Source: Streptomyces sp. S.PB5 (GTDB taxonomy: Bacteria; Actinomycetota; Actinomycetes; Streptomycetales; Streptomycetaceae). Taken from it: a DNA stretch of 64,000 nt. The stretch is from positions 868,001-932,000 of the forward strand of contig NZ_JAQMWP010000001.1 of the NCBI RefSeq assembly GCF_030403745.1, read 5' to 3'. Made by a program: the position numbers and the translations under genes. The notes under the pieces are model-generated. The model saw nothing but the letters and a program-made list of their open reading frames with translations, had not been told where the DNA came from and searched no databases. Of the stretch, positions 63,632-64,000 are shown in pieces (position 1 is the stretch's first letter; every line of letters starts with the position of its first letter).

Positions 63632-63661
63632 TTCGACCGTCCCGCGGCATGCCTCCTACAG
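63632..63661 (+). promoter_or_regulatory. Promoter-like sequence before the permuted tRNA pair
   Basis: TTCGAC (63632-63637) and TACAGT (63656-63661) are 18 bases apart and would start RNA near 63668, just at the small hairpin that precedes the first tRNA-like unit. This is a sequence match only. Confidence 0.45.
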
Positions 63662-63669
63662 TGAAGAAC

Positions 63670-63697
63670 GTCCAGGTGCGAAGGCAGGACCTACTTC
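63670..63697 (+). ncRNA. Conserved structured element before permuted tRNA 1
   Basis: GGTGCGAAGGC (63675-63685) sits in a loop closed by GTCC (63670-63673) and GGAC (63687-63690), and TACTTC follows (63692-63697). The same arrangement occurs before the second unit. Confidence 0.5.
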
Positions 63698-63775
63698 CAC
63701 TCATAATGGGGCGGCCGCGGGTTCGAGTCCCGCCACCGGTACAACGCGCCGGTGTAGCTCAGGGGTTAGAGCACC
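63695..63775 (+). tRNA. Circularly permuted tRNA-like gene 1, anticodon CAT
   Basis: The parts of a class I tRNA appear in reversed half order. First comes the anticodon arm TTCCA-CTCATAA-TGGGG (63695-63711; anticodon CAT at 63702-63704). A 5-base variable loop and the T arm GCGGG-TTCGAGT-CCCGC (63717-63733) follow, then the acceptor 3' strand CACCGGT (63734-63740). After a 7-base linker comes the acceptor 5' strand GCCGGTG (63748-63754), which pairs with CACCGGT (six Watson-Crick pairs, one G-T). Then come TA and a canonical D arm GCTC-AGGGGTTA-GAGC (63757-63772). No usual 5' half lies before 63695 and no T arm follows 63775. If CC (63774-63775) joined CCA (63697-63699), the anticodon stem would be perfect. 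CCA is not encoded. Confidence 0.6.
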
Positions 63776-63871
63776 TAATGTCGGTTCCGCCGACCTGAAC
63801 TCTGGACACCACAACTTCATGCACCTCCCGGTGCGAGTCTTTTGAACTCGGGAGGCGCAGCTCATGGTGGG

Positions 63872-63899
63872 TGCCCGGTGCGCAGGCGGCGGATACTTC
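63872..63899 (+). ncRNA. Conserved structured element before permuted tRNA 2
   Basis: GGTGCGCAGGC (63877-63887) lies in a loop closed by TGCC (63872-63875) and GGCG (63888-63891), and TACTTC follows (63894-63899). Over 23 positions 17 match the first copy, and the stem bases differ but still pair. Confidence 0.5.
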
Positions 63900-64000
63900 G
63901 GGAGCTGGTGGGGGCCTGACCCTCTTGCGGGTTCGAATCCCGTCATCGACCCAAGGTCGATGTGGCGGAATGGAAGACGCGCCAGTCATAAGCACCGCAG
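63897..64000 (+). tRNA. Circularly permuted tRNA-like gene 2, class II (Leu-like), runs to the window edge
   Basis: Again the 3' half comes first: an anticodon-stem strand GCTGG (63904-63908), a long variable arm GGGGG-CCTGA-CCCTC (63910-63924), the T arm GCGGG-TTCGAAT-CCCGT (63927-63943) and the acceptor 3' strand CATCGAC (63944-63950). After a 5-base linker comes the perfectly complementary acceptor 5' strand GTCGATG (63956-63962), then TG and a Leu-type D arm GCG-GAATGGAAGA-CGC (63965-63980). CCAGT (63982-63986) pairs with GCTGG. The anticodon is uncertain: TTCGGGA precedes GCTGG, whereas TCATAA follows CCAG. The 5' half or its flank may continue beyond 64000. Confidence 0.55.

What the first reader, a model, noticed from the sequence alone, without database searches (positions are those of the whole stretch)
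63660..64000. Two tandem circularly permuted tRNA-like genes in a Streptomyces
Seen directly: twice in 340 bases a T arm plus acceptor 3' strand is followed, after only 7 or 5 bases, by the matching acceptor 5' strand plus D arm. The acceptor pairs are CACCGGT/GCCGGTG in unit 1 and CATCGAC/GTCGATG in unit 2, so the bases differ between units while pairing is kept. T arms (TTCGAGT, TTCGAAT loops) and D arms are canonical for class I and Leu-type class II tRNAs. No conventional partner halves lie at normal spacing. Established knowledge: permuted tRNA genes are known from red and green algae and some archaea, where the precursor is circularised and then cut by RNase P and tRNase Z. I do not know of them in Streptomyces. 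Inference: these are functional permuted tRNAs, or tRNA-shaped RNAs with closed acceptor ends.
Basis: partly seen in the sequence, partly recalled or inferred. Interest (0 to 1): 0.95.

Follow-up and report, generated by a model that had tools for sequence, protein, structure and literature searches.

The report
Tandem tRNA-mimic Y RNAs in Streptomyces
Two neighbouring sequences shaped like tRNAs read in rotated order sit just ahead of a Ro60-family (TROVE) gene in a Streptomyces genome; they are most likely a divergent, tandem form of the known bacterial 'Y RNAs', which imitate tRNA, rather than tRNA genes that would be used for making protein.

Summary
In detail: two modules in T arm - acceptor 3' - short loop - acceptor 5' - D arm order, acceptors 7/7 paired, with no tRNA called in the window. 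They are best explained as YrlA-type Y RNAs. Each module tips a ~140-150-nt RNA closed by a conserved basal stem; the next gene (window 64076 on) has the Ro60/Rsr TROVE domain. Orthologous units match Rfam YrlA at E down to 2.5e-12, yet 0 of 61 Streptomyces genomes pass Rfam's cut-off. Base pairs covary. A unit-2 model matches below E 1e-9 in 75 of 81 TROVE-bearing and 1 of 69 TROVE-less genomes. Acceptor caps are 3-9 nt in 103 of 104 called units, 21 being C(UUCG)G, and 13 acceptors have 5 bp: against processing into tRNA. Additions that I saw no account of: a tRNA-less third stem between the two (truncated here), giving a T-S-T array; an anticodon-arm-like, covarying hairpin in unit 1; unit 2 alternating between Leu-like and class I mimicry. 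No RNA evidence was available.

The parts
63657..63662 (+). promoter -10-like hexamer TACAGT (TANNNT), 7 nt upstream of the first paired base of the unit-1 basal stem
   Evidence: TANNNT in the 18 nt up to the stem in 49 of 49 unit-1 sequences (own included); 9 of 980 control windows of the same size further upstream. Predicted only; no transcript data.
63668..63809 (+). unit 1: Y RNA with circularly permuted tRNA-like tip (basal stem + anticodon-like hairpin + T arm + closed acceptor + D arm)
   Evidence: 35 pairs, 99.6% of cells paired, 13 pairs with two-sided changes, 0/500 shuffles as good; R2 80.6 bits; Rfam YrlA 35 bits, below the 69-bit cut-off
63670..63675 (+). unit 1 outer basal stem, 5' strand GTCCAG (pairs with 63802-63807 CTGGAC)
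   Evidence: 100% paired in 49 sequences, one pair with a two-sided change
63683..63691 (+). unit 1 inner basal helix 5' strand GGCAGGACC (pairs with 63783-63791, one A.C mismatch)
   Evidence: 98.7% paired, 4 of 8 pairs with two-sided changes
63695..63711 (+). unit 1 anticodon-arm-like hairpin TTCCA-CTCATAA-TGGGG
   Evidence: 99.6% paired; C-G to G-C in 6 sequences and A-U to G-C in 1 of 49; Fitch count of 5 label changes on the TROVE tree, one of them (L054) an indel and not a compensatory change
63717..63733 (+). unit 1 T arm (loop TTCGAGT)
63734..63754 (+). unit 1 acceptor stem, 7 bp, closed by 7-nt loop ACAACGC
   Evidence: 4 of 7 pairs with two-sided changes
63757..63772 (+). unit 1 D arm
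   Evidence: invariant stem in 49 sequences, so no covariation test possible
63823..63856 (+). middle element: truncated tRNA-less Y-like stem (outer stem kept, inner helix and loop lost; 34 nt here against 70-78 nt in the 69 aligned relatives)
   Evidence: stem-only elements with the same motif in relatives, 6 of 18 pairs with two-sided changes; 34 nt also in L026 and L031, 32 nt in L072
63870..64000 (+). unit 2 (third RNA of the array), cut by the window end; full extent G000:C1:931870-932021 = window 63870-64021; Leu-type tRNA-like tip with a class II-like variable arm (63910-63924)
   Evidence: R2 123.1 bits, E 3.7e-24; 20 of 36 pairs with two-sided changes in 56 sequences; variable arm read by eye
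63927..63962 (+). unit 2 T arm (63927-63943) and acceptor stem CATCGAC/GTCGATG closed by CCAAG

Best explanation
The two permuted tRNA-like sequences are most likely the tRNA-mimicking tips of two tandem Y RNAs of the YrlA kind, which lie just upstream of a TROVE (Ro60/Rsr-family) gene and are predicted to act as noncoding partners of that protein rather than as tRNAs. Shown by sequence: each unit is a ~140-150-nt module in which a two-part basal stem carries T arm, closed acceptor and D arm in rotated order; base pairs covary; the module co-occurs with TROVE and usually lies beside it; a third, tRNA-less stem lies between the two. Inferred: transcription starts at the basal stem of unit 1 from the conserved -10-like site; the transcript is cut into separate RNAs; the basal stem binds the TROVE ring; the tRNA-like end recruits a tRNA-binding partner or PNPase, as described for other bacteria, tuning decay or repair of structured RNAs. 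The rotated order arises because the RNA's two ends leave the tRNA fold on the anticodon side and the acceptor end is capped by a loop.
For: Downstream gene is TROVE (Pfam E 2.2e-13; two PDB chains named TROVE domain-containing protein at about 1e-27). Orthologous units match Rfam YrlA over model positions 1-114 at 54.3 bits (E 4.7e-10) and 59 bits (E 2.5e-12). Covariation: unit 1, 13 of 35 pairs; unit 2, 20 of 36 pairs; for both, no shuffle of 500 reached the observed value on any of the five measures. R2 match with E below 1e-9 in 75 of 81 TROVE-bearing genomes and 1 of 69 TROVE-less ones (my count, by reading, from the tables; the best match may lie away from the TROVE gene, as in G081 and G123); the one exception, G125, keeps a fragmentary TROVE gene beside the RNA. 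In named Streptomyces, 77 of 80 TROVE loci have a unit 2 upstream and 52 of 80 a unit 1 (some of these genomes also supplied the models). The 6 loci fetched of 13 matching genomes outside the genus all have TROVE beside the RNA. Closed, short-capped acceptors. Literature: YrlA has a basal stem plus tRNA-like domain, is a substrate of DusA and TruB, and Rsr, Y RNA and PNPase form RYPER (PMC8394870, passages); Y RNA 6CU1 superposes on tRNA with circular permutation (PMC11472068, passages).
Against: No expression or binding data. Our own unit 1 scores only 35 bits with Rfam YrlA, and adjacent ordinary tRNA-Asn genes score 39.3 and 41.3 bits at the two places checked, so that hit alone is not specific. 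Free folding is not decisive: the MFE of unit 1 forms the outer stem, hairpin, T arm, acceptor and D arm but not the conserved inner helix, and is no more stable than shuffles (z -0.61, 53 of 200 as good; conserved fold -48.1, MFE -54.4 kcal/mol); the MFE of unit 2 keeps the acceptor stem but not the T arm (z -0.83 and -1.98 for two stretches). The anticodon-stem helix of unit 2 pairs in only 88.1% of cells. The Pfam TROVE match covers 62 of 442 profile positions. No RtcB match lies on the window's contig; the three matches are on other contigs. Six TROVE-bearing genomes lack an R2 match below 1e-9 (G038, G041, G055, G069, G143, G147); in four of these (G038, G041, G143, G147) the only TROVE hit is of a paralogue type without a called unit upstream.
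Confidence: 0.93

Rival explanations
1. Functional permuted tRNA genes: the precursor would be circularised and the acceptor loop cut out by RNase P and tRNase Z to give charged tRNAs.
For: Correct permuted order and intact tRNA arms; unit 1 even has an anticodon-like 7-nt loop CTCATAA; 10 of 49 unit-1 sequences have N-CCA after the acceptor.
Confidence: 0.02
2. Debris of ordinary tRNA genes (adjacent tRNA halves, deletion or misassembly).
For: Unit 2's D arm is nearly that of tRNA-Leu; adjacent tRNA-Asn genes do produce a false permuted hit.
Against: Same order in dozens of separate assemblies with compensatory changes; no complete tRNA nearby.
Confidence: 0.01
3. Cis-acting tRNA-like leader of the TROVE mRNA (a regulatory 5' UTR, possibly autoregulated by the protein) rather than free Y RNAs.
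For: Units lie upstream of the TROVE gene on the same strand, with a conserved -10-like site before unit 1; the three elements are tightly spaced (10-14 nt between first and second in 29 of 32 T-S-T arrays, 9-14 nt between second and third in 32 of 32).
Against: Units matching the same model, with a similar basal stem, also occur away from TROVE: G000:C1:257383-257522 (81.3 bits) and 17 fetched places in other genomes with no TROVE hit within the ~3-kb stretch. The two are not exclusive: a leader could be processed into Y RNAs.
Confidence: 0.04

Closest known systems
YrlA Y RNA (Rfam RF02553; Salmonella rsr-yrlBA-rtcBA operon; PDB 6CU1)
   Same: Basal stem plus T arm - closed acceptor - D arm tip; adjacent Ro60/Rsr-family gene; in unit 2 the anticodon stem runs on toward the basal stem.
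   Different: No match above Rfam's cut-off in any of 61 Streptomyces genomes; tandem with a tRNA-less stem between; unit 1 closes its own anticodon-like hairpin; no RtcB match on the same contig; Leu-like D arm in 13 of 57 unit-2 copies.
Deinococcus radiodurans Y RNA with Rsr and PNPase (RYPER)
   Same: Y RNA partnered with a TROVE protein; predicted tethering role.
   Different: Sequence not compared here; known from passages only.
Permuted tRNA genes of algae and archaea
   Same: Circularly permuted order of the arms.
   Different: Those have a processed intervening segment and yield tRNAs (recalled, no call); here the acceptor is capped by a short loop and the module stands on a basal stem.

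Membership tests
YrlA-type bacterial Y RNA | 5' and 3' ends pair in a basal stem | tested here: met
   Outer and inner helices conserved with two-sided changes
YrlA-type bacterial Y RNA | tRNA-like tip with T arm, D arm and closed acceptor in permuted order | tested here: met
YrlA-type bacterial Y RNA | encoded with or near a Ro60/Rsr (TROVE) gene | tested here: met
YrlA-type bacterial Y RNA | score above Rfam RF02553 gathering cut-off (69 bits) | tested here: not met
   35 bits here; best 59 bits in 61 Streptomyces genomes. A detection threshold and not a biological criterion; the filing rests on the other features.
YrlA-type bacterial Y RNA | RNA is made, bound by Rsr, and modified by DusA/TruB | not testable with these tools
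   needs RNA and protein experiments
Permuted tRNA gene | yields a mature aminoacylatable tRNA with 3' CCA and anticodon | tested here: inconclusive
   sequence argues against (caps, 5-bp acceptors; no anticodon loop in unit 2), but no RNA data
Permuted tRNA gene | processable intervening segment between acceptor 3' and 5' strands (criterion recalled) | tested here: not met
   3-9 nt caps in 103 of 104 called units (one of 17 nt), 21 of them C(UUCG)G
Ro60/Rsr protein (downstream gene) | TROVE domain | tested here: met
   Pfam PF05731 50.6 bits over cut-off 23, 62 of 442 profile positions; PDB TROVE chains E about 1e-27

The most novel reading that the evidence does not exclude
Streptomyces Ro60 loci encode a three-RNA set: a complete four-arm permuted tRNA mimic with its own anticodon arm, a tRNA-less Y RNA, and a second mimic whose tRNA identity (Leu-like or class I) is swapped again and again. 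This would make one TROVE ring able to choose among several tRNA-binding partners, or make the RNAs decoys for tRNA-cleaving enzymes.
Probability: 0.35. Interest if true: 0.6.

Novelty: new variant of a known kind. Interest (0 to 1): 0.42.

Why it matters
It explains away an apparent case of permuted tRNA genes in Streptomyces and shows that a branch of tRNA-mimicking Y RNAs falls below the cut-off of the standard family model. The T-S-T arrays, the anticodon-arm-bearing mimic and the frequent change of mimicked tRNA type would give a tractable system, in easily grown bacteria, for asking what the tRNA-like end of Y RNAs is for, which the passages I could read leave open.

Tried and rejected
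Rejected: functional permuted tRNA genes, tRNA debris and misassembly (see rivals). A weak R2 hit (52.9 bits, E about 3e-8) seen in TROVE-less genomes looked like Y RNA; at the two places checked (L097, L098) it is a pair of adjacent tRNA-Asn genes, so I counted only E below 1e-9 as strong. The other weak hits (for example around E 7e-5) were not checked. ARAGORN calls a tRNA-Lys, a tRNA-Cys and a tRNA-Asp overlapping three of the off-site units (L104, L107, L110). Thermodynamic folding alone did not support the fold. For the middle element the controls are weaker than for the two units: 1 of 500 shuffles reached the observed number of pair types, and sliding the partner by -2 gives nearly the same covariation score (0.075 against 0.078), though pairing drops to 51%. 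The search for homologous proteins and structure prediction were not used. Papers: the primary YrlA papers (Chen 2014, Wang 2018, Sim and Wolin 2018) could not be opened and are known to me only through citing papers and recall. Searches in whose listings I saw no account of Streptomyces Y RNAs: (open-licence library only; listings seen, most listed papers not opened; one search listed 20 of 64).

Rows dropped and other counts: alignment A2 used 56 of the 57 unit-2-type sequences (L069 left out as its outer stem differs); A3 used the 69 stem elements of 61-79 nt out of 77 called S elements. Two of 57 unit-2 sequences (L018, L076) could not be called. L052 lacks the DNA upstream of TROVE. A stricter scan found two permuted modules in 34, one in 31 and none in 24 of the same 89 loci. 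The caller undercounts: some loci called TS have a unit 2. One search evaluated unit 1 with coordinates one base off; its energy is not used and was redone.

Full report
WHAT IS THERE. The window ends inside the feature. The window is G000:C1:868001-932000, so I fetched the DNA to its right. Two modules in the order T arm, acceptor 3' strand, short loop, acceptor 5' strand, D arm lie at 63717-63772 and 63927-63980. Both acceptor stems pair 7 of 7 and the loops are 7 and 5 nt. ARAGORN calls no tRNA in the window or in an 18-kb stretch around its end. A scan for the permuted pattern gave 10 hits in 1.23 Mb of mononucleotide-shuffled sequence, so two in 340 bases is far beyond chance.

WHAT THEY BELONG TO. 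At window coordinate 64076, 76 nt past the window end, a frame of 526 codons starts (L004 2076-3656) whose protein has the TROVE domain of Ro60/Rsr (Pfam 50.6 bits against a cut-off of 23, over 62 of 442 profile positions) and matches two PDB chains named TROVE domain-containing protein at E about 1e-27. Each module is the tip of a longer RNA: unit 1 is closed by GTCCAG/CTGGAC and GGCAGGACC/GGTTCCGCC (63668-63809), unit 2 by GGTGCCCG/CGGGCACC and GGCGGCGG/CCGCAGCC (63870-64021). The order basal stem - T arm - capped acceptor - D arm - basal stem is that of the bacterial Y RNA YrlA, which has a basal stem and a tRNA-like domain (PMC8394870, passages) and superposes on tRNA with a circular permutation (PMC11472068, passages).

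TESTS. Rfam's YrlA model hits unit 1 at 35 bits (cut-off 69). That alone is weak, because adjacent ordinary tRNA-Asn genes reach 39.3 and 41.3 bits at the two places checked. Orthologous units do better and over the full model: 54.3 bits, E 4.7e-10 and up to 59 bits, E 2.5e-12. None of 61 Streptomyces genomes has a match above the cut-off. I took 89 TROVE loci from the 150-genome sample (81 of 150 genomes have TROVE) and called stem-closed units upstream with a pattern rule: T-S-T 32, S-T 21, T-S 15, T 3, S 3, S-S 2, S-S-T 1, T-T 1, none 11 (T = with tRNA-like tip, S = stem only). These are lower bounds. Of the 11 without a call, L052 lacks upstream DNA and 9 of the other 10 give weak R2 hits of S size (27-34.5 bits).

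COVARIATION. Unit 1, 49 sequences: 99.6% of cells paired, 13 of 35 pairs with changes on both sides, 0 of 500 shuffles as good on any measure; sliding the partner drops pairing to at most 46.6%. Unit 2, 56 sequences: 96.5% paired, 20 of 36 pairs with two-sided changes, again 0 of 500 on every measure; slid versions reach at most 52.4%. Middle S element, 67 distinct sequences: 96.2% paired, 6 of 18 pairs with two-sided changes; here 1 of 500 shuffles reached the number of pair types and one slid version nearly equals the covariation score; its small apical hairpin is the weak part (84.5% paired, no two-sided change). The structures were derived from members of the alignments, which favours the pairing percentage; the two-sided changes are less exposed to this.

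LINKAGE. A covariance model of unit 2 (R2) gives a match below E 1e-9 in 75 of 81 TROVE-bearing genomes and 1 of 69 TROVE-less genomes of the same sample (my count, by reading, from the tables). In some genomes the best listed match lies on another contig than the TROVE gene (G081, G123). The exception, G125, retains only pieces of a TROVE gene beside the RNA. In the class, 23 of 197 genomes match at E 1e-9 or better, in 10 of 90 genera; the 6 loci fetched, of 13 matching genomes outside the genus, all carry TROVE next to the RNA. Among the 80 named TROVE loci kept of 247, all Streptomyces, 77 have a unit 2 (over 100 bits) and 52 a unit 1 (over 150 bits) upstream; one of the rest, L217, has no upstream DNA. 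Some of these genomes also contributed to the models, so this is a replication in named strains and not a fully independent test.

WHY NOT tRNA GENES. In 49 unit-1 and 55 called unit-2 sequences (2 of 57 not callable) the acceptor cap is 3-9 nt, with one exception of 17 nt; 21 caps are C(UUCG)G; 13 unit-2 acceptors have only 5 bp; N-CCA follows the acceptor in 10 of 49 and 0 of 55. In unit 2 the anticodon-stem strands pair across the module and run on toward the basal stem (helix 3, all 5 pairs with two-sided changes, 88.1% of cells paired), so there is no anticodon loop.

WHAT IS DIFFERENT FROM THE KNOWN KIND. (a) Between the units lies a stem with the same CCCGGTGCG...CTCGGG signature but no tRNA-like tip, 70-78 nt in the 69 aligned relatives and cut down to 34 nt in this genome, L026 and L031. 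In this genome the stretch around it folds more stably than shuffles (z -3.70). (b) Unit 1 has a hairpin TTCCA-CTCATAA-TGGGG just before the variable loop and T arm, where an anticodon arm would be; it pairs in 99.6% of cells, with C-G to G-C in 6 and A-U to G-C in 1 of 49; a Fitch count on a TROVE tree gives 5 label changes, one of them (L054) an indel. So unit 1 reads as a permuted tRNA mimic with all four arms. The triplet in the loop varies (CAT, CTT, GAT, GTT and others), which argues against decoding. (c) Unit 2 has a Leu-type D arm in 13 of 57, a class I type in 41 and another in 3, with 12 inferred switches on the TROVE tree against a mean of 14.8 for shuffled labels (minimum 10), i.e. 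mimicry type is nearly independent of the protein's phylogeny; the tree is a quick one and this is suggestive only. A pattern of our unit 2's D arm matches elsewhere in the genome only at two tRNA-Leu(GAG) genes. (d) Similar units also occur away from TROVE, including G000:C1:257383-257522 (81.3 bits) and a stem-only copy at G000:C10:195690-195765 (40.2 bits) in this genome, and 17 fetched places in other genomes.

HOW IT PROBABLY WORKS. Shown: anatomy, conservation, covariation, linkage. Predicted: a TANNNT -10-like site lies in the 18 nt before unit 1's stem in 49 of 49 sequences against 9 of 980 control windows, so transcription likely starts at the basal stem, and the array is likely cut into separate Y RNAs. 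Inferred from other bacteria: the basal stem binds the TROVE ring and the tRNA-like tip engages a partner such as PNPase, which this genome has (one match); the Salmonella authors also raise the possibility that YrlA acts as a competitive inhibitor of an anticodon nuclease (PMC7790460, passages). RtcB-family matches are in the genome but on other contigs. An alternative that I cannot exclude is that the array also acts as a leader of the TROVE mRNA.

LIMITS. No expression, binding or processing data. Free folding of single sequences does not favour the conserved fold. The primary Y RNA papers could not be opened here, so whether Streptomyces Y RNAs were already listed in them is unknown to me; in the listings of my searches of the open library I saw no such account. 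YrlA has been predicted in some mycobacteria and in one Mycolicibacterium prophage (PMC9569102, PMC8190616; passages), and a TROVE protein is reported in M. smegmatis (PMC8628891, passage).

Noticed in passing
G000:C1:257383-257522 (-) (L002/L118): An off-site Y RNA-like unit with stem GTTCAG/CTGAAC beside a tRNA-Val gene; no TROVE hit in the fetched stretch.
   Followed up: partly
G000:C10:195690-195765 (-) (L121 1501-1576): A stem-only Y-like element away from TROVE in the same genome, with the same GTTCAG/CTGAAC stem.
   Followed up: partly
L005-L009, L011, L012, L016, L017, L019: A second TROVE paralogue type in some Streptomyces has no called tRNA-like unit upstream, but 9 of these 10 loci give a weak stem-size model hit.
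   Followed up: partly
L104 1433-1506, L107 1478-1547, L110 1607-1684: ARAGORN calls tRNA-Lys, tRNA-Cys and tRNA-Asp overlapping Y RNA-like units; such calls may stand in public annotation as odd extra tRNAs (not checked).
   Followed up: no
L099 (G125:C2:134800-139500): A TROVE gene reduced to fragments next to a stem element and a high-scoring unit 2: a locus apparently being lost.
   Followed up: partly
L004 6896-10198 (-): A 1100-aa open frame with TIR-like start, NTPase-like and tetratricopeptide-like look (by eye, no family search), about 3 kb beyond the TROVE gene.
   Followed up: no
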